NCBI GenBank assembly: GCA_030950395.1
Contig: JAUZRP010000011.1
Span: forward strand, 54,070-118,069
From: Desulfonauticus sp.
GTDB lineage: Bacteria; Desulfobacterota; Desulfovibrionia; Desulfovibrionales; Desulfonatronovibrionaceae
DNA length: 64,000 nt
Reading direction: 5' to 3'
In this document: piece after piece, positions 1-56,676 of the stretch
How positions within the stretch are numbered: the first letter of the stretch is position 1
Layout: the number at the start of each line of letters is the position of its first letter
The notes under the pieces: generated by a model
What the model saw: the letters and a program-made list of their open reading frames with translations, nothing else
The model's database searches: none
What the model was told of the DNA's origin: nothing
Translations under genes and position numbers: made by a program

Positions 1-837
1 ATAAGTAATAATAGTAGGCAAAGATAAAAGAGCACATTCCAGAGTTACTGTGCCAGATGCTGCCAAAGCAAGTTTAGCTGAAGCCATTTGTTCGTATCTT
101 TTCTCAGTATCAACGATCTCATAATCATGTTTTAAGGGCAAAAAAGACTTAATAAAATTTAGTTCTAGATTATGGGATTTAATCAAAGTTACCTGTAAGT
201 TGGGATTGTTTTTTTGCAGTAAAGAAACTGTTTGTCCAAATACAGGTAACAATTTACTGACTTCTTTTTTTCTACTCCCTGGCAATAAAAGCAATTTGTT
301 AGGTTTTCTGGGAATAGAAGAATAAACAGAAAAATCTATTAATTCTAAAAGAGGATGTCCCACATACAAAGTATTAACGCCTTGTTTTTGAAAAAATTCC
401 TTTTCAAAAGGAAAAATAGCAAATACTTTGCGTACGTATTTTTTTAAAAACTTTACTCTACTAGGACGCCATGCCCATAACTGAGGTGCAATGTAGTAAA
501 ATACGGGGATATTTAAACCAGCAGCATATTTTGCCAGGCGAAAGTTAAAATCAGGGGCATCAAACAAAATAATTGCATCTGGTTTGTACTTAGCTAAACT
601 AAGCTTTATATTTTTTAATAATTTTAAAATACGAGGCAAACTGGAAAATACTTCTACCAAACCCATTACAGATAGATCTTCTGCTCTATAAAGAGCCTCT
701 AAACCTGCCTTGCGACTATGTAGCCCACCCATACCTATAATTTTTAGACAAGGACAATGCTTTTTTAACCAAGAAATTAAAAGTCCTGCATAAATATCTG
801 CAGAAGGTTCGCAAACGTTTATCCACAGTGTGGGCAT
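1..837 (-). CDS. lpxB: Lipid-A-disaccharide synthase LpxB (3' end runs off the window)
   Basis: Reverse-strand translation starts MPTLWINVCEPSADIYAGLLISWLKKHCPCLKIIGMGG and contains ILFDAPDFNFRLAKYAAGLNIPVFYYIAPQLWAWRPSRVK, typical of LpxB. Confidence 0.9.
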   Translation of the reverse strand, partial: MPTLWINVCEPSADIYAGLLISWLKKHCPCLKIIGMGGLHSRKAGLEALYRAEDLSVMGLVEVFSSLPRILKLLKNIKLSLAKYKPDAIILFDAPDFNFRLAKYAAGLNIPVFYYIAPQLWAWRPSRVKFLKKYVRKVFAIFPFEKEFFQKQGVNTLYVGHPLLELIDFSVYSSIPRKPNKLLLLPGSRKKEVSKLLPVFGQTVSLLQKNNPNLQVTLIKSHNLELNFIKSFLPLKHDYEIVDTEKRYEQMASAKLALAASGTVTLECALLSLPTIITY

Positions 838-859
838 ATATTTTTCCCAAAAAATTATT

Positions 860-2227
860 TTATTTTCCAATACAAAAATTTTGAAATATATTATTTAAAA
901 CTTCATCAGTGGTAATTTCCCCTGTAATTTCCTGTAAATAACGACAGGCTAAATCCAAGTGCACGGCTAACAGATCATAGGGTAAATCCCCTAAATGGGT
1001 CAATAAATTTTCCAATTCTTGGTATGCCTTTTGAAGACAATTTTTTTGTCTTAAATTAGGTACTAAATCAGAAGTAGCTTCCAAACTATCACCGCTTAAG
1101 TGTCCCACAATAGCATCTATTACATCAGAAATACCTTCTCCTGTTGCAGAAGATATTTTAAAAACAGGTAAGTTTAATGTTTTTACCCAGGAAGGCTCTT
1201 TTGAGCTCAAATCAACTTTAGTTAAAAGCAAAAAAACATCTCTGAAGGATTTTAATTCTAAAATTTTTTGTTCGTAAGAGGTAAATTTTTCTCTTATATC
1301 GACTAACAACAAACAAAGATCAGATTTTTGAATAAGCTCCAATCCCCTTTGAAGGCCTATTTGCTCTATTTCATCCTGAGTTTCTCTAAGACCTGCTGTA
1401 TCTATCAATTTTATTGGAAGACCTTTAAAATTTACGTATTCTTCCAGATAATCTCTGGTAGTACCTGGAATAGACGTAACAATCGCCCTTTCCCTACCCA
1501 ATAAAGCATTGAGTAAACTTGACTTGCCAGCATTGACTCTGCCTGTTAGAACCACAAGGGCCCCATCCTGATATAAGTGTTTTTGTCTGTAACTTTCAAT
1601 AAGGCTGTTAATTTCCTGCAAAACCTTTTGGACTTTTTCCTGGACCAGATGAGGCGGGGCACATTCCAAATCTTCTTCTGGAAAGTCAACAGCTACACAA
1701 AAATCCTGTTTTAATTCTTCTAAAATTGTTCTAAGGGAAGCAATTTTTTGTTGTAAAAGACCTTGTAATTTTTTCTGGGCCAGAGGAATAGCTGCTTGAG
1801 TAGGAGCATTAATGAGTTCCATTACTGCTTCGGCTTGGGTTAAATCTATCTTGTGGTTTAAAAAAGCCCTATAGGTAAACTCTCCAGGATTAGCCAGCCG
1901 TGCTCCAGCTTTTAAAACCTCTTCTAAAACACTCTGCAATACAGCAGGCCCTCCATGGCAATTAATCTCTACCACGTCTTCACCAGTATAAGAACCTGGG
2001 GCAGGCATGTAGGCCAACAAAATTTCGTCTAACACCTCACCTTTAAGGCTAACAAAATATCCGTGATGCAGCCTATAAGGTTTGATACAGGTGAAATCTT
2101 TTTTCGCTGAAGAAAAAAACTTTTGGCCTATAACTAAACTTTTGGCCCCACTTAAACGAATAATACCCACCCCTCCCTTTCCAAGCGGGGTAACTATAGC
2201 TGCAATAGTATCTGTTGATTGCTGCAT
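860..2227 (-). CDS. mnmE: tRNA modification GTPase MnmE/TrmE
   Basis: DTIAAIVTPLGKGGVGIIRLSG N-terminus, GRVNAGKSSLLN P-loop, C-terminal CIGK. Confidence 0.97.
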   Translation of the reverse strand: MQQSTDTIAAIVTPLGKGGVGIIRLSGAKSLVIGQKFFSSAKKDFTCIKPYRLHHGYFVSLKGEVLDEILLAYMPAPGSYTGEDVVEINCHGGPAVLQSVLEEVLKAGARLANPGEFTYRAFLNHKIDLTQAEAVMELINAPTQAAIPLAQKKLQGLLQQKIASLRTILEELKQDFCVAVDFPEEDLECAPPHLVQEKVQKVLQEINSLIESYRQKHLYQDGALVVLTGRVNAGKSSLLNALLGRERAIVTSIPGTTRDYLEEYVNFKGLPIKLIDTAGLRETQDEIEQIGLQRGLELIQKSDLCLLLVDIREKFTSYEQKILELKSFRDVFLLLTKVDLSSKEPSWVKTLNLPVFKISSATGEGISDVIDAIVGHLSGDSLEATSDLVPNLRQKNCLQKAYQELENLLTHLGDLPYDLLAVHLDLACRYLQEITGEITTDEVLNNIFQNFCIGK

Positions 2228-2266
2228 TCTAATTGAGTCTATCTATGCACCTTTTTTATCTTCTAA

Positions 2267-2731
2267 TCAAAGCAAACCAAAACTTTTTAACACATTGGCC
2301 ACCTGACGATCGCTTTTAGCCAACTCCCTTAAAGCCAGAATTAAGTTTCTTAACTTCCCTTCTCTTTCTATTTCTCTTATGGCTTCTTCTTTGGCCTTAG
2401 ATATAATAGTCCTTCTGTCCCAATAGGCAAAACCTATAACTCCCAAAGTCAAAGTGGTAAATATAGTCGTTAGAATCCATAAGAAATTCATCATTTGCTC
2501 AAAACGCTTATCCACCTGCTCAAAACGCTTATCCACCTGCTCAAAACGACTATTCATATCTTTTCTTAAATCTTCTAATCGCTTATCGGTCTGCTCCATA
2601 AATACCTGCAGAGTGGTTTCTAGTTTGATCAAACGCTCTCTATCTGCCTGAGTAAAACCTGTGGGAGCAGCCCTGACCTGAAAGGCAAACAGCAAATACG
2701 CAAGCAGAATAAATAAAATCTTTTTTTTCAT
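2267..2731 (-). CDS. Small exported/membrane coiled-coil protein with RFEQVDK heptad repeats
   Basis: Signal peptide-like N-terminus, repeated DKRFEQV, one TM segment; no known function. Confidence 0.7.
   Translation of the reverse strand: MKKKILFILLAYLLFAFQVRAAPTGFTQADRERLIKLETTLQVFMEQTDKRLEDLRKDMNSRFEQVDKRFEQVDKRFEQMMNFLWILTTIFTTLTLGVIGFAYWDRRTIISKAKEEAIREIEREGKLRNLILALRELAKSDRQVANVLKSFGLL
2496..2557. repeat. 21-bp in-frame tandem repeat (tgctcaaaacgcttatccacc), 2 full copies plus a partial
   Basis: Direct reading; encodes RFEQVDK repeats of the overlapping CDS. Confidence 0.9.
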
Positions 2732-2771
2732 AATTTTCTCCTGCCCCTTATTTTACCTTACCTTACTGCCC

Positions 2772-3875
2772 TCACACTTGCATGGCAATAAAATCTCCCA
2801 TCTGAGAACAGGTCAATTTTTTTTGCCCCTGGGTAAAAATGTCTGCTGTTCTATAGCCTGCATCTAAAGTCTTTTGGACTGCTGTTTCAATAGCTTTAGC
2901 TTCTTCCTGGAGATGAAAAGAATGTTCCAACATCATGGCTACAGACAAAATAGTAGCTATAGGATTAGCTATGTCCTGTCCTGCAATGTCTGGAGCAGAG
3001 CCGTGAATTGGTTCGTAGAGTCCAAGATCCCCTTGCCCCATAGAAGCAGAAGGTAAGGTGCCAAGAGTTCCACTTATTACCCCTGCTTCGTCAGACAAAA
3101 TATCTCCAAATAAATTACCCGTAACAATAACGTCAAATGTATAAGGTCGAGCCACGAGCTGCATGGCTGCATTATCTACGTATAAGTGCTCTAGCTCAAC
3201 TTCTGGATAGTCTCTAGCCACTTCTTGCACCACTTCATTCCACAGTTGCGAGACTTCCAAAACATTGGACTTATCCACTGAAGTGACTTTTTTTCTCCTG
3301 GTTAAAGCAATTTTAAAAGCCAAATGGGCTATACGTCTAACTTCTGACTCAGTGTAACGCATGGTATTAAAGCCCACCTTTTCCCCATTTTCTTCTTTGA
3401 TGCCTTTGGGCTCACCAAAATAAATACCACTGGTCAGTTCTCTGACCACGATAAGGTCAATACCCCTGGCAACAATATCTTCTCTAAGTACGCTGGCCTT
3501 CTGCAAAGCAGGGAATAATTTCACCGGACGCAAATTAGCAAACAAATCCAACGACTTTCTAATACCTAACAAACCACTTTCTGGCCGCAAGTGACGGGGC
3601 AAATTATCCCACTTAGGGCCACCTACTGCTCCCAACAATACGGCTTGACTATCTTTACACTTTAATATGGTCTCCTCTGGCAGTGGCTCTCCTGCTTTAT
3701 CAATAGCCTCCCCGCCAATCAATGCAGTTTCTAAGACAAGAGAATGGCCATATTTCTGAGCCACGGCCTTTAAAACCTTTACTCCTTCTCGTACCACTTC
3801 TGGGCCTATACCATCTCCAGGCAACAAACATATTTTTAATTGCATTTTAAGCCCCCTGTAATCTTTGTTTGGCAA
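2772..3875 (-). CDS. leuB: 3-isopropylmalate dehydrogenase
   Basis: [19 protein letters not shown] and [31 protein letters not shown] motifs; the start may be at [12 protein letters not shown]. Confidence 0.96.
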
Positions 3876-4344
3876 AAGGAATAAGTCCTCCTGCTTGCAG
3901 TATTTTTTGGATAAATTCAGAAATAGGATTTAATTCAAACTCCACGTTTTGAGTAACATTTTTTAACATATTCTGGGTAGTATCAATTTCCAATAAATCA
4001 CCTTCTGCAATCTCCCCTACCCGATCCCCTAACTCTAGCAACAACAGGCCCATATTAAAACCATTTCTATAAAAAATTCTGGCAAAACTATGGGCCACAA
4101 CGACTTTAATACCTGCCCCTAAAATAGCTAATGGAGCATGCTCCCTGGAAGATCCGCAACCAAAATTTTTACCAGCCACTAAAATAGTATCAGGCTGAAT
4201 CTTTTGCCTAAAATTTTCTTCCAAACCAGACAGACAATGTTTACCCAACTCTTCCATATCTGTGGTTACTAAAAACCTTGCTGGAATAATTGCATCTGTA
4301 TCTATATGATCCCCAACTTTTAATGCCTTTCCTTTGTAAAACAT
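3847..4344 (-). CDS. leuD: 3-isopropylmalate dehydratase small subunit
   Basis: [15 protein letters not shown] and [17 protein letters not shown] motifs. Confidence 0.96.
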
Positions 4345-4411
4345 AGAACCTTCTCCTAATTATTGTTTAATTCTTAACAAATAAACAATTAAACGTAACT
4401 TTACCCCTTTC

Positions 4412-5668
4412 TTACACATCTTTAGGATTGGTGATATAACCTGTAAGGGCTGAAGCAGCAGCTACATATGCACTGCTCAAATAAACTTCACTGTCCAGAC
4501 TTCCCATTCTGCCCTTAAAATTACGATTGGTAGTAGCCACGCACTTTTCGCCAGCAGCCAAAATCCCCATATGTCCTCCCAAACAAGGACCACAAGTAGG
4601 CGGGCCTATTACTGCTCCAGCTTCCATAAAAATCTCTAACAATCCTTCTTTAAGAGCCTGTTTATAAATATTGGGCGTGGCTGGCAAAATAATCAAACGC
4701 ACTCCCTTAGCCACTTTATTACCTTTGAGCAATTCTGCGGCCTGTCTCAAATCAGAAATTCGACCATTGGTACAAGAACCTATGACCACTTGATCTATTT
4801 TTATGCCTTTAACTTCATCTACAGGACAAACGTTTTCAGGCAAGTGAGGACAACTCACCACAGGCTCTAATTTGGTGGCATCAAAAGTAATTTCACGCTC
4901 ATAGTTAGCATCTTTTTCTAAAACCAATTCCCTATCTTGCCTGCCACAAGCAGAAGTATAAGCCAACGTCTTAGCATCTGCAGGGAACAACCCTGCTTTG
5001 GCTCCTGCTTCTATAGCCATGTTGGCAATGGTCATTCTGCCTTCCACATCTAAGTCAGAGATAACCTCTCCTGTAAATTCTAAAGCTTTATACAGGGCTC
5101 CATCCACTCCAATATGACCAATGACTGTCAAAATAATGTCCTTGGCAGTGACAAATTTATTTAATCTGCCTTTAATCTCTACTAAAATGCTGCCAGGCAC
5201 TTTAAACCAGGTTTCTCCAAAGGCCATAGCATAAGCAATGTCAGTGGACCCAAGACCTGTGGCAAAAGCTCCTAACCCACCATAAGTGCAGGTATGACTA
5301 TCTGCACCTATCACCACGTCCCAGGGTCCAACCAGTCCTAACTCTGGCAAAAGGGCATGTTCTACTCCCACGTCTCCACCTTCGTAATAATGCACAATAC
5401 CTTGCTCCTGAGCAAATTCCCTGACTTTTTTTACCTGCTCAGCAGATTTAATGTCCTTATTTGGGGTAAAGTGATCACAAACCAAGATCACCTTTTCCAC
5501 ATCAAACACTCGTTTTGCTCCCATTTTAAAAAAAGATTCTATAGACAAAGGAGCAGTAATGTCATTGGCTAAGACTTTATCCACTTTTACCTGCACGATT
5601 TGACCAGGCCCTGTGATTTCCTCACTAGTATGGATTTGTAAAATTTTTTCACTAAGAGTTTTGGCCAT
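4412..5668 (-). CDS. leuC: 3-isopropylmalate dehydratase large subunit
   Basis: GADSHTCTYGGLGAFATGLGSTD, GSCTNGRISDLR and GPPTCGPCLGGHMG motifs. Confidence 0.96.
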   Translation of the reverse strand: MAKTLSEKILQIHTSEEITGPGQIVQVKVDKVLANDITAPLSIESFFKMGAKRVFDVEKVILVCDHFTPNKDIKSAEQVKKVREFAQEQGIVHYYEGGDVGVEHALLPELGLVGPWDVVIGADSHTCTYGGLGAFATGLGSTDIAYAMAFGETWFKVPGSILVEIKGRLNKFVTAKDIILTVIGHIGVDGALYKALEFTGEVISDLDVEGRMTIANMAIEAGAKAGLFPADAKTLAYTSACGRQDRELVLEKDANYEREITFDATKLEPVVSCPHLPENVCPVDEVKGIKIDQVVIGSCTNGRISDLRQAAELLKGNKVAKGVRLIILPATPNIYKQALKEGLLEIFMEAGAVIGPPTCGPCLGGHMGILAAGEKCVATTNRNFKGRMGSLDSEVYLSSAYVAAASALTGYITNPKDV

Positions 5669-7184
5669 TAGTTTGTTCCTCCTCTTTTTTTACCAACCTA
5701 TTTAAAGCATTTATATAAGCTTTGGCACTGGCTACGATAATGTCTGGATCAGAAGCTCTGCCCACGGCTGTAAGGTTATTTTCCTCCACACGCACAGTTA
5801 CCTCTCCTTGGGCATCAGTGCCTCCTGTAATAGCGTTTACAGAATAACGCAAAAGCTTTGGTTTTCTATCCACTATTCGGCTAATGGTATTAAATATTGC
5901 ATCAATGGGACCAACTCCAAAGTCAGCTAATTTTTTCTCCTCCCCATTGACTTGCATTTTTAAAACAGCCGTAGGGATGGCCATGTTTCCAGAAATAGCA
6001 CTCAAATACTTTAATTCAAATTTATCTGGCAAACGATAAACCTCTTCCAGAACAATGGCCTCCACATCTTCATCGTAAATCTTTTTCTTTTTATCTGCCA
6101 AATTTTTAACTGCTAAAAAAACTTTATTTAATTCTTCTTCTCCCAAATTATAGCCCAATTCCTGCAATTTCTGTTTTATAGCGTGCCTGCCGGAATGTTT
6201 TCCCAAAACAATATCTGAGCTAGTTTTGCCCACACTTTGGGGAGTCATAATTTCGTAGGTCAACCTATTTTTTAACACTCCATCCTGATGGATGCCAGAT
6301 TCGTGCGCAAAAGCATTGGCCCCTACAATAGCCTTATAAGGAGGTATGGGTTGACCAATAATTAAAGAAAGCAACCTGCAGGTAGGATAGATTTGCTCTG
6401 TTTGAACATTGGTAACAAAATTATAATACTCCTTACGCACAGTTAAATTCATAATGACTTCTTCTAAAGCTGCATTTCCAGCCCTTTCTCCAATACCACT
6501 CACCGTAACCTCTGCCTGCTTTGCCCCAGCCTTAAGAGCGGCTAAAGTATTGGCCACTGCCAGACCAAGATCATTGTGACAATGCACACTAAAAATAACT
6601 TTTTCTGCCCCTCGCACGTGTTTTCGCAAATAAGTAATTAACTCAAAAAACTCACCTGGTTGCGTATAGCCCACCGTATCGGGAACATTTAAAACTTTGG
6701 CCCCACTTTCAACAGCTACGCTAAAAACTTCCACTAAATAATCCCAATCAGACCGTGAGGCATCCTCGGCAGAAAATTCTACGTTTGGACACAATTTAGC
6801 AGCCAAACGCACGGCTTCTCGGGTAATGTCTAAAACCTCTTGTCTGGATTTTTTTAATTTATATTTTAAATGCACATCCGAGGTAGCAATAAACGTATGA
6901 ATACGTGGCTCTGGACTATGCTTTACAGCTTCGTAAGCCAAGACAATATCTTTTTCCACTGCCCGACAAAGACCTGCCACCTGAACCTGTTGAACTGATC
7001 TGGCAATCTCCTGGACAGCTTTAAAATCACCTTCACTAGCAGCAGGAAAACCAGCTTCTATAATATCCACACCCAATCTTTCCAATTGCCTGGCCATTCT
7101 CTTTTTTTCCTGTAAATTCATGGTAGCTCCAGGAGATTGTTCTCCATCTCTTAAGGTAGTATCAAAAATGTATATTCTCTCCAT
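5652..7184 (-). CDS. leuA: 2-isopropylmalate synthase
   Basis: FDTTLRDGEQSPGATMN, HCHNDLGLAVANTLAA, HESGIHQDGVLKN. Confidence 0.97.
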   Translation of the reverse strand: MERIYIFDTTLRDGEQSPGATMNLQEKKRMARQLERLGVDIIEAGFPAASEGDFKAVQEIARSVQQVQVAGLCRAVEKDIVLAYEAVKHSPEPRIHTFIATSDVHLKYKLKKSRQEVLDITREAVRLAAKLCPNVEFSAEDASRSDWDYLVEVFSVAVESGAKVLNVPDTVGYTQPGEFFELITYLRKHVRGAEKVIFSVHCHNDLGLAVANTLAALKAGAKQAEVTVSGIGERAGNAALEEVIMNLTVRKEYYNFVTNVQTEQIYPTCRLLSLIIGQPIPPYKAIVGANAFAHESGIHQDGVLKNRLTYEIMTPQSVGKTSSDIVLGKHSGRHAIKQKLQELGYNLGEEELNKVFLAVKNLADKKKKIYDEDVEAIVLEEVYRLPDKFELKYLSAISGNMAIPTAVLKMQVNGEEKKLADFGVGPIDAIFNTISRIVDRKPKLLRYSVNAITGGTDAQGEVTVRVEENNLTAVGRASDPDIIVASAKAYINALNRLVKKEEEQTNGQNS

Positions 7185-41387: not shown

Positions 41388-43415
41388 TTATAAAAAATCT
41401 TCTATTTTACTTGGTTTTGAGAACAAATACCCCTGAGCAAACGCATTGCCCTTAAAACCTACATCTTTTATGATAATTTTTAATAACTCCAAAATTTGCT
41501 CATTTTCTACGTATTCGAATATAATGTCTTTGCCAATCTTATTGGCCAGAAACGTAGATGTTTCTACTATGTGTTTATGATGTTTGGAGTCAAGAACGTA
41601 TTTTAAAATATCTCCATCAATCTTTAAAAATTTAACATTTTCTTTATAAGATAATTCAGCCACTCTTTCCAAATTTGTATAACCTCGCCCAAAATCATCC
41701 AAAGCAACATCAACATCTAAACTCGTTAAAACGTTCATTATAGAACTATTATCAATTGATTCATATTCTGTTATTTCAAAAACTAAAGATATACCTCTAT
41801 CTTTTGCCTTATAATTTAATTTTCTAACAGTGTCTAATACTTTTGTATCAATGTATGAAGTTGGAAATAAATTAATAAAAATTCTTTTTAAATTTTTCAT
41901 CTTATCTAAATATCCATTTACTATAGATAAAACTTTTAAATCTAAATCTCTAGTCAATTCTTTTTCCTTTATATAAGATATAAACTTATAGGCAGGAATT
42001 GTAGTTTTATCGTCTAAAATACGAACCAGAACTTCCACTCCAAACAAAGAACTGTCTTGAATAGATATTATTTTTTGGCCAAATATCTCCAATCGTTCAG
42101 TTCCAGAAACATAATCCTGACATTCTTTACTTCTGATATTGAGAAGAAGATTGTCTATGAGACAACCATACGTTACTATTTCCATTACTTTTTTATATAT
42201 ATCATCTAATTCTTTTTTAGAATAAACAAAAAATTCTTCTTTTTGATTCATAGTATAATCAGAAATTATCTCAAACATAATAGAAAGTTGAAATGCATCT
42301 AAAGAATAAGTTCTTTTAATCATGTCTACGTCAACAAATGAAATCCTATATTTTAAAGCATTATCTATTTCCTTTTTTTCTTTAATCTGTTTTTTTATCT
42401 TATCTACAGATTTTTTTATAATATCTACAACATCATTCACAGATGAATAATTATAGGTAATAAAATAAATTTTATTTTTTAACATAAAACCAAATAATTT
42501 ATCCTCATAGATACAATTTATGTGTTTTATTAATTTTTCAGAAAATTCACTAAATAAATAATCTTTATAAAATGTTTTATCAGATGGAGTTACGACAAGT
42601 GTAACTATATTATCACTAAACTTTGGATCAGATAAAAAATTAAAGAAAATATTTTCTTTATCTTTATCCCACTTATAAAAAAGATAAATAGTGTATAAAA
42701 TAAATAAATATAAATTTATGGAAAACATTCTGGCCATTCTTAGGGCTTTTATATAGTCTCTTTTTACTAAAAATTGCAATAAACGTACGCTAAAATCATG
42801 AAGATTTTTATGGAAAAATTGTATAATAGGCGCTATTTCTTTATAAGAGTAAGAAATAACCAAAAAAGCAGGACTTGAAAGCCAATTACTCACCTTATCT
42901 TGTCCAAATAAACTTTTATTTGCAATATTTTCAAAATCTTCTTTTTCTATAATATCTCTTAAAAATTCAACAAATTTCAATTGATGATAAATAAGTTTAT
43001 TATTCTCCTTCAACATCTTTAAAATTTTTATAGATTCGTTTAATATGCCTTGAATGTAGGTAAAAGCATTACCACTCTTAAAATCCAAAAAAACATTGTC
43101 TATATTTTCCAAAGGTAAAGATATAGCATTATTAAAAACTAAATTTTTAATCATCTTATTTACGTAATCAAACATTTCAAACATAAAGTCCTCTTGAATT
43201 CTAAAGTTAAAATGTATTTTACCTACCTTTTGACCATAATCAAAAGATTTTGTTCCATCTAAAAGTTGTTCTTGAAGATATTTTGCTTGTTGTCTAATCA
43301 ATTGAGGAAATTGTTCAAAAGATGAAAAAAAATCATTCAAATAAGGATCTTGTAATACTTTCATATAAAAATATTGAAAAACACTTTCTAATTCTTCTAT
43401 GTCCCTATTGTTCAT
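41388..43415 (-). CDS. Predicted globin-coupled sensor protein with C-terminal EAL phosphodiesterase domain
   Basis: C-terminus: GVEVLVRI, LVFEITE, VALDDFGRGYTNLERV, FLKIDGDIL, FEYVENE, AQGYLFSKP. N-terminus FQYFYMKVLQDPYLNDFFSSFEQFPQLIRQQAKYLQEQLL...VGKIHFNFRI resembles sensor globins. Confidence 0.8.
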   Translation of the reverse strand: MNNRDIEELESVFQYFYMKVLQDPYLNDFFSSFEQFPQLIRQQAKYLQEQLLDGTKSFDYGQKVGKIHFNFRIQEDFMFEMFDYVNKMIKNLVFNNAISLPLENIDNVFLDFKSGNAFTYIQGILNESIKILKMLKENNKLIYHQLKFVEFLRDIIEKEDFENIANKSLFGQDKVSNWLSSPAFLVISYSYKEIAPIIQFFHKNLHDFSVRLLQFLVKRDYIKALRMARMFSINLYLFILYTIYLFYKWDKDKENIFFNFLSDPKFSDNIVTLVVTPSDKTFYKDYLFSEFSEKLIKHINCIYEDKLFGFMLKNKIYFITYNYSSVNDVVDIIKKSVDKIKKQIKEKKEIDNALKYRISFVDVDMIKRTYSLDAFQLSIMFEIISDYTMNQKEEFFVYSKKELDDIYKKVMEIVTYGCLIDNLLLNIRSKECQDYVSGTERLEIFGQKIISIQDSSLFGVEVLVRILDDKTTIPAYKFISYIKEKELTRDLDLKVLSIVNGYLDKMKNLKRIFINLFPTSYIDTKVLDTVRKLNYKAKDRGISLVFEITEYESIDNSSIMNVLTSLDVDVALDDFGRGYTNLERVAELSYKENVKFLKIDGDILKYVLDSKHHKHIVETSTFLANKIGKDIIFEYVENEQILELLKIIIKDVGFKGNAFAQGYLFSKPSKIEDFL

Positions 43416-43618
43416 AACTCCTCCCCTGATTATAAAACAAATATACAAAAAAACCTTACAGCCAATTTCAATATCTTTTTTCCCTATTCCTTCCTGGTTT
43501 GAATAATTACCAGTTAGTGTTTAACATTACAACTGAAATTTTTAATACCTGGTCTTGACTAGTTGAACTAAAAATAAAAGCAACACTCTGAACGGAATAT
43601 TTAACAGATAAGCCGAAA

Positions 43619-54570: not shown

Positions 54571-54646
54571 GCCGAGGTAGCTCAGTCGGTAGAGCAGGGG
54601 ACTGAAAATCCCCGTGTCGGCAGTTCGATTCTGTCCCTCGGCACCA
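54571..54646 (+). tRNA. tRNA-Phe (GAA), CCA encoded
   Basis: gccgaggtagctcagtcggtagagcaggggactgaaaatccccgtgtcggcagttcgattctgtccctcggcacca. Confidence 0.97.
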
Positions 54647-54897: not shown

Positions 54898-56127
54898 ATG
54901 GCCAAAATACTAATTTCCTCTCTTGGGACAGGTAAAAGACAAAACAACCAATACGATAGAGCAATTTATGAATATAACGGCAAACAAAAAGAAACCCCAT
55001 TTATTGCCAAGGCTTTAAGCGACTTTTTAGAAATAGACAAACTGTTTTTAGTTGGCACTAAAAAATCTATCTGGGACTGTGTGTGTTATGAGTTTGGAGG
55101 AAATGAAGATTATACCCTAAAACTATACGACAAACAACATAACGGGACCTTATCTCAAAATGACCTCACAACCTTAAACACTATTATTGACAACTATCTA
55201 GGCACTAAGGGCTCTGAATGCTTCATTATAGAATATGGCCTAAATGAAAAAGAATTATGGAACAATTTTCACATTTATCTAAAGATTTTAGAAAAAATAA
55301 CCGATAAAGATAAAGTGTATTTGGACATCACTCATTCCTTCAGGTCATTATCTTTAATGAGCTTTGTCATGTTAAACTTTGGAGAAATCATAAAAAAGAA
55401 GACTTTTACTATAGACGGCATTTTTTACGGCATGTTAGAATACAGGCACGAGAATAATGGCATCACACCCATTGTGGATTTAAAAATGTTTTATGCTTTA
55501 ATGAAATGGATAATAGCCATAGAAAATTTTACTGAATATTCTAATGGTGACAAAATTGTTTCTTTGCTTCAAGAAAATGAAAATAAAGAAGAGAAAAAAA
55601 TATTTGAAAGAATATCTCTCTCATTTCAAATGTCCAATCTCTTTTATCTTCATCAAAACGTAAAGCAATTATCTAACAAATTAAACAAACTTAAAAACAG
55701 TAAAAATCAAATTGTAAACCTTCTCATTGAAGAAGTAGAGAATTTTATTAATTTCTTAAACAGAGATAGAATTTCAGACTTCCAATTGGCAGTTGCCAAG
55801 TGGTTTTACGAACACAAAAATTATGCCCTAAGCTATATGGCCTTAACAGAAGCAATTGTTAGTAAAGTCTGTGAAGCAAAAGGTTACAATGTTGAAGATA
55901 AAGACGCCAGAAATCAGGCTAAAAAGGAAATTTCACAAATAAATAAAAACTTATACCATGTCTTTAAAAACGTAAGAGAAATTAGAAATAACATAGCTCA
56001 CCAACTGCAAGACAGAAAAGATGCAGTAAGTCAAGATAGAGTAAATCTCGAAAATTATTTAAAAAAGACAGAAGATCTATTTTTTACAATTGATTATTCG
56101 TCGATAGCACATAAAAAATTTGAATAA
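54898..56127 (+). CDS. CRISPR-associated CARF-HEPN protein (Csx1/Csx2, DxTHG family)
   Basis: MAKILISSLGTGKRQNNQYDRAIYEYNGK..., VYLDITHSFRSLSLMSFVML (DxTH-S/G motif), C-terminal HEPN RNase motif REIRNNIAHQL (R-x4-H). Confidence 0.88.
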   Translation: MAKILISSLGTGKRQNNQYDRAIYEYNGKQKETPFIAKALSDFLEIDKLFLVGTKKSIWDCVCYEFGGNEDYTLKLYDKQHNGTLSQNDLTTLNTIIDNYLGTKGSECFIIEYGLNEKELWNNFHIYLKILEKITDKDKVYLDITHSFRSLSLMSFVMLNFGEIIKKKTFTIDGIFYGMLEYRHENNGITPIVDLKMFYALMKWIIAIENFTEYSNGDKIVSLLQENENKEEKKIFERISLSFQMSNLFYLHQNVKQLSNKLNKLKNSKNQIVNLLIEEVENFINFLNRDRISDFQLAVAKWFYEHKNYALSYMALTEAIVSKVCEAKGYNVEDKDARNQAKKEISQINKNLYHVFKNVREIRNNIAHQLQDRKDAVSQDRVNLENYLKKTEDLFFTIDYSSIAHKKFE

Positions 56128-56227: not shown

Positions 56228-56518
56228 ATGACTCTCACAGTAACCAATCAATGTCCATACGACCCAATGGGCATGGCTCAAGGGCCACGAAATGGCACAG
56301 GTCCTAGGAGACAAAGGGCGCAACAGGTTCAACAACGTTCTCAAATTCAGGTACAAAACCAAGTCCAGAACAGGATACAAACTCAAACCAGAACGAGAAA
56401 CAGAATACAACAACAAACTCAGGTCAGCAACCCTATACAGCAACAAACTCAAAATCAAGTTTTACAGCAAACTGACCTCACTACAAGCATCGGGACGAAT
56501 TTAAATGTTGAAGCCTAG
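56228..56518 (+). CDS. Q/T/N/R-rich low-complexity small protein
   Basis: Strong RBS aaggaggtgaaacatg; 96 aa, GPRNGTGPRRQR then Q-rich repeats; followed by a hairpin. Confidence 0.65.
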   Translation: MTLTVTNQCPYDPMGMAQGPRNGTGPRRQRAQQVQQRSQIQVQNQVQNRIQTQTRTRNRIQQQTQVSNPIQQQTQNQVLQQTDLTTSIGTNLNVEA

Positions 56519-56558
56519 TACCCGCTAAAAATAACCTGTTTTCTCAACAAACAATTTT

Positions 56559-56592
56559 ACGTCTTGCCTGTAAAATTTTACGGGCAAGACGT
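56559..56592 (+). terminator. Hairpin acgtcttgcctgtaaaattttacgggcaagacgt downstream of the Q-rich ORF
   Basis: Near-perfect inverted repeat spanning 34 nt. Confidence 0.65.
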
Positions 56593-56676
56593 ATTTATCA
56601 AACGTTAAATTTAATACTCACGAAAAAATTTAGATAAAATTTGTTAGCACTGATTAAGCGGTATCTTAAATTAGAG

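What the first reader, a model, noticed from the sequence alone, without database searches (positions are those of the whole stretch)
54898..56127. Orphan CARF-HEPN (Csx1/Csx2-like) RNase gene without CRISPR context
The ORF carries a DxTH-S/G motif (VYLDITHSFRSL) and a HEPN catalytic motif (REIRNNIAHQL). In the Csx1/Csm6 group these mark cyclic-oligoadenylate-activated RNases of type III CRISPR. The window has no array, Cas10 or other cas gene; the gene sits 250 bp after tRNA-Phe, next to housekeeping genes. It may serve a distant type III locus in trans, or respond to a nucleotide signal outside CRISPR.
Basis: partly seen in the sequence, partly recalled or inferred. Interest (0 to 1): 0.72.

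Follow-up and report, generated by a model that had tools for sequence, protein, structure and literature searches.

The report
Csx1 RNase serving distant CRISPR loci
The gene encodes an ordinary CRISPR-linked RNA-cutting enzyme (Csx1) that sits away from any CRISPR locus, in a genome that carries several type III CRISPR systems predicted to make the signal that switches it on.

Summary
ORF 54898-56127 (+) encodes a 409-aa CARF-HEPN protein (TIGR02221/Csx1, PADLOC CARF2--CARF_HEPN) with an intact DxTH CARF motif and RNxxxH HEPN motif. No CRISPR array was found in the window. The suggested CRISPR-independent role is not supported. The same genome carries at least five type III loci: two III-B, one III-A, one III-C and one III-D-like. 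Four of their Cas10 proteins have a GGDD cyclase motif. Two loci encode a CARF-RelE (Cami1-like) effector of a family known to respond to cA4. The closest homologues examined mostly lie in type III operons, usually just after csm5 of III-A. The best solved relative, Marinitoga Csx1-Crn2, is a cA4-activated RNase. The gene is absent from two congeners, has unusually low GC, and lies where two blocks that are separate in the congeners meet. It looks like a gained, displaced type III effector. Best explanation: a Csx1 RNase activated in trans by cA4 from the unlinked Cas10 complexes. Unlinked CARF genes and in-trans effector sharing are already described or proposed in the literature. Activity was not tested.

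The parts
54898..56127 (+). csx1/csx2 (TIGR02221) gene, 409-aa CARF-HEPN protein
   Evidence: full-length profile match to Marinitoga Csx1-Crn2 structures
54907..55572 (+). N-terminal CARF (cOA-sensing) domain, residues 4-225
   Evidence: TIGR02221 match to residues 4-225
55315..55350 (+). CARF motif VYLDITHSFRSL; H146 aligns with H129 of Csx1-Crn2, a residue needed for cA4 activation
   Evidence: PMC7293037
55975..56007 (+). HEPN catalytic motif REIRNNIAHQL (R363, N364, H368)
54571..54646 (+). tRNA-Phe; right end of the left-hand block (flagellar genes, hflX, plsY, tRNA-Phe)
56228..56518 (+). small Q-rich ORF (96 aa) between csx1 and the next conserved block; not found in congeners; no Pfam match; relation to csx1 unknown

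Best explanation
This is a Csx1-family (TIGR02221/Csx2) ancillary ribonuclease of type III CRISPR-Cas immunity, encoded away from any CRISPR locus. Shown by sequence: family, domain order, intact sensing and catalytic motifs, and type III loci with GGDD Cas10 elsewhere in the same genome. Inferred: when one of those Cas10 complexes binds target RNA it makes cyclic tetra-adenylate; the signal diffuses, binds the dimeric CARF domain around the DxTH motif, and switches on the HEPN site (R363/H368), which cuts RNA without sequence specificity to slow the phage and the host. Also inferred: the gene came from a III-A-type operon by horizontal transfer or displacement and landed at a rearrangement junction beside tRNA-Phe.
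For: Family: TIGR02221 148.6 bits, PADLOC CARF2--CARF_HEPN 5e-116. Cas10 in the own genome: palm-domain hits over cut-off at C123 (two) and C131. PADLOC names III-B (C123), III-A (C131), III-C (C85) and III-D-like (C24) Cas10. GGDD is present in the two C123 Cas10s and in those of C131 and C24. Arrays are on C123 and C24. CARF-RelE effectors lie in the C123 III-B and C131 III-A loci; the Cami1 CARF-RelE family is cA4-activated (PMC11229360). Only one TIGR02221 gene is in the genome. The closest homologue found in named genomes (35% over residues 1-366) sits directly after csm4-csm5. Homologues in G058, G007, G125, G301, G160, G379 and G134 lie in III-A loci, in G023 and G033 in III-B loci. Profile match over the full length to Marinitoga Csx1-Crn2, 6e-27, a cA4-activated RNase whose H129 and HEPN histidine are needed (PMC7293037). 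In-trans effector sharing is proposed on statistical grounds in PMC11229360.
Against: No co-regulation, cOA binding or RNase data. The assembly is a 172-contig draft and the contig ends about 8 kb after the gene, so a nearby unassembled cas locus is not excluded. The two congeners have Cas10 but not this gene, so it is not obligatory. Which Cas10 feeds it is not known. The AlphaFold models are poor, so the fold rests mainly on sequence profiles.
Confidence: 0.87

Rival explanations
1. A Csx1 that has been separated from its locus and is now a relic, no longer used, on the way to being lost.
For: Patchy distribution: 6 of 61 relatives including the own genome; a homologue in G058 is broken by stops; the gene sits at a synteny breakpoint.
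Against: The reading frame is intact over 409 codons and the sensing and catalytic residues are kept.
Confidence: 0.07
2. A CRISPR-independent CARF-HEPN nuclease that answers a nucleotide signal from another pathway, for example a CBASS-like cyclase or stress signal.
For: No cas gene beside it in the window; [quoted passage not shown] One homologue (G306, L076) shows no recognised cas gene within about 9 kb and another (G024) is about 21 kb from Cas10.
Against: The own genome has several GGDD Cas10 loci, and 10 of the 12 homologue contexts examined are in type III operons. No alternative cyclase was seen next to the gene.
Confidence: 0.04
3. The gene is part of a further type III locus that the assembly breaks up, so it is not truly unlinked.
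For: The contig ends about 8 kb downstream; some cas loci lie on short or cut contigs such as C1 and C164.
Against: Both flanks are housekeeping genes conserved in congeners (plsY and hflX on the left, YdjM-like and sufBD-like on the right), and the junction on each side of csx1 is inside the contig.
Confidence: 0.02

Closest known systems
TIGR02221 / Csx2 (TM1812-type) branch of Csx1, PADLOC CARF2--CARF_HEPN PDLC01826
   Same: Domain order, length, DxTH and RNxxxH motifs, full-length profile match
   Different: Most examined homologues lie in type III operons; this one is unlinked
Marinitoga Csx1-Crn2 (PDB 8y6z, 8y75, 8y7g; PMC7293037)
   Same: Full-length profile match of the Csx1 part; CARF histidine and HEPN RN...H align
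   Different: No fused Crn2 ring nuclease here; sequence identity is low; cA4 activation shown there, only inferred here
csx1 after csm4-csm5 in a Halanaerobiaceae MAG (L041)
   Same: 35% identity over residues 1-366
   Different: It is inside a III-A operon

Membership tests
Csx1 (TIGR02221 / CARF2--CARF_HEPN) | Profile match above the curated cut-off | tested here: met
   148.6 bits against 76.25; PADLOC 5e-116
Csx1 (TIGR02221 / CARF2--CARF_HEPN) | CARF domain with DxTH motif | tested here: met
   D143, T145, H146; D143 and H146 invariant in 11 homologues; TIGR02549 above cut-off
Csx1 (TIGR02221 / CARF2--CARF_HEPN) | HEPN RNase site R-x4-6-H | tested here: met
   R363-N364-x3-H368, aligned with the HEPN site of Csx1-Crn2
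Csx1 (TIGR02221 / CARF2--CARF_HEPN) | CARF-HEPN three-dimensional fold | tested here: inconclusive
   Model of low confidence (pLDDT 46); the 20 best Foldseek matches are nevertheless Csx1/Csm6-type proteins, at low TM-scores
Csx1 (TIGR02221 / CARF2--CARF_HEPN) | RNase activity switched on by cA4 | not testable with these tools
   needs purified protein
Type III CRISPR-Cas ancillary effector | A cyclase-competent Cas10 in the same cell | tested here: met
   Cas10 with GGDD at C123 (two), C131, C24; cyclase activity itself not tested
Type III CRISPR-Cas ancillary effector | Encoded in or beside a type III cas locus (usual, not required) | tested here: not met
   No array or cas gene in the window by array scan and reading of nearby ORFs; the type III loci found are on other contigs
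Csm6 (cA6-activated CARF-HEPN) | Best match to Csm6 rather than Csx1 profiles | tested here: not met
   Csm6 profile PDLC01448 8e-5 against the best Csx1 profile PDLC01345 at 1.6e-53

The most novel reading that the evidence does not exclude
A stand-alone Csx1 kept as a shared downstream RNase for several co-resident type III systems (III-A, two III-B, III-D-like), so that one effector gene is activated by several Cas10 complexes in one cell.
Probability: 0.3. Interest if true: 0.35.

Novelty: new member of a known kind. Interest (0 to 1): 0.17.

Why it matters
It is a clear, single-copy example of a csx1 unlinked to any cas locus in a genome with several cyclase-type Cas10 loci, so it could serve as a test case for the proposed in-trans sharing of cOA effectors between type III loci. 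It does not show a new mechanism.

Tried and rejected
PF09455 (Csx1_HEPN) gave no match in the own genome, probably because that model covers another Csx1 branch. phmmer of the single protein against PDB found nothing; the profile of 11 homologues did. Scans of viral contigs failed three times. tblastn found no phage homologue and only distant plasmid csx2 homologues. A tRNA-borne integrative element was considered: the repeat search around tRNA-Phe and csx1 showed only short imperfect repeats and no copy of the tRNA 3' end downstream, and no integrase ORF was recognised near it.

Full report
Observation. The ORF at 54898-56127 (+) is real, 409 aa, with an AAGGA-like ribosome site. It matches TIGR02221 with 148.6 bits (cut-off 76.25) and the DxTHG model with 32.9 (cut-off 21). 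Its best PADLOC model is CARF2--CARF_HEPN at 5e-116. In an alignment of 11 homologues D143, H146, R363 and N364 are invariant and H368 is kept in all that reach it. The window has no CRISPR array and the gene follows tRNA-Phe by about 250 bp.

Genome context. The window is part of contig C13 of a 2.22-Mb draft in 172 contigs, completeness 96.87%, contamination 1.94%. The rest of the genome has type III loci: RAMP-family hits on C123, C131, C85, C24, C164 and C108 (the weakest were not examined) and Cas10 palm hits over cut-off at C123 (two) and C131. PADLOC labels the Cas10 proteins III-B (C123, two), III-A (C131), III-C (C85) and III-D-like (C24). Both C123 Cas10s, and those of C131 and C24, carry GGDD; the C85 III-C protein does not. 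Arrays lie on C123 and C24, with shorter ones on C1 and C108. CARF-RelE proteins lie in the C123 III-B and C131 III-A loci. An RtcR-type CARF-AAA-HTH protein adjoins the C24 Cas10, and a CARF5 protein is near cas1 on C46. The csx1 of the window is the only TIGR02221 gene. The C131 contig belongs to this organism's genus: its uvrA-like region and its CARF-RelE gene match both congeners at about 70% DNA identity.

Relatives. The gene is absent from the two congeners, which do have Cas10. Their left block (flagellar genes, hflX, plsY) and right block (YdjM-like, sufBD-like, ABC ATPase) match the window but lie apart, so csx1 and a small Q-rich ORF sit where two blocks meet in this genome. csx1 has 30.3% GC, second lowest of 51 ORFs of 150 aa or more in the window (mean 36.8%, sd 3.2). 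The closest homologue found in named genomes, in a Halanaerobiaceae MAG, follows csm4 and csm5. G058 has a homologue with stops beside III-A genes. G007, G125, G301, G160, G379 and G134 have homologues in III-A loci; G023 and G033 in III-B loci. G024 is about 21 kb from Cas10 and G306 has no cas gene recognised within about 9 kb. The subtype reading for the G125-G134 group comes from matches to this genome's own cas proteins, not from curated models.

Structure and mechanism. A profile of the 11 homologues matches PDB 8y75, 8y6z and 8y7g over the full length at 6e-27; 8y7g is described as Marinitoga sp. Csx1-Crn2 with cA4. The Csx1-Crn2 of Marinitoga piezophila, also 563 aa, is a cA4-activated RNase; the CARF change H129W abolishes activation and the HEPN change H402A abolishes cleavage (PMC7293037). 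H146 here aligns with H129. The HEPN RN...H aligns with R401/H406 by my count in the PDB numbering, four residues from the R397/H402 of the paper; I could not explain that offset. AlphaFold models were poor, but the top Foldseek matches of the better one are Csx1 and Csm6 structures. Csx1 is defined as cA4-activated, and the Cami1 CARF-RelE family also uses cA4 (PMC11229360), so the CARF-RelE genes beside two of the Cas10 loci fit cA4 as the cell's signal. This step is inference.

Known or new. CARF genes unlinked to CRISPR-Cas are described in each CARF family (PMC4012209), and sharing of effectors between type III loci in one genome has been proposed (PMC11229360). The finding is an ordinary member of a known kind in an unlinked position.

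Noticed in passing
56228-56518 (+): Small ORF of 96 aa rich in Q, R and N, with a strong AGGAGG site, between csx1 and the next conserved block; no Pfam match and absent from congeners.
   Followed up: partly
41388-43448 (-): 686-aa EAL-domain protein with a weak N-terminal protoglobin match and 24.6% GC, by far the lowest of the window's larger ORFs.
   Followed up: partly
56558-56593: 18-nt inverted repeat with no spacer (TACGTCTTGCCTGTAAAA / TTTTACGGGCAAGACGTA), probably a terminator between the small ORF and the facing gene.
   Followed up: no
L023 (G000:C131) 1-38: The first 38 bases of this III-A contig match a unit repeated at about 75-bp steps in congener G002 (C19, C61), so the contig probably ends in a CRISPR array.
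   Followed up: no
L058 (G002:C104) 2-4519: In congener G002 type III-like cas genes (a Cas10 palm hit and neighbours) adjoin the far end of the same flagellar/plsY block that ends beside csx1 in the window.
   Followed up: no
L025 (G000:C24) 4023-7030: An RtcR-type CARF-AAA-HTH regulator gene directly precedes a GGDD Cas10 of III-D-like type.
   Followed up: no
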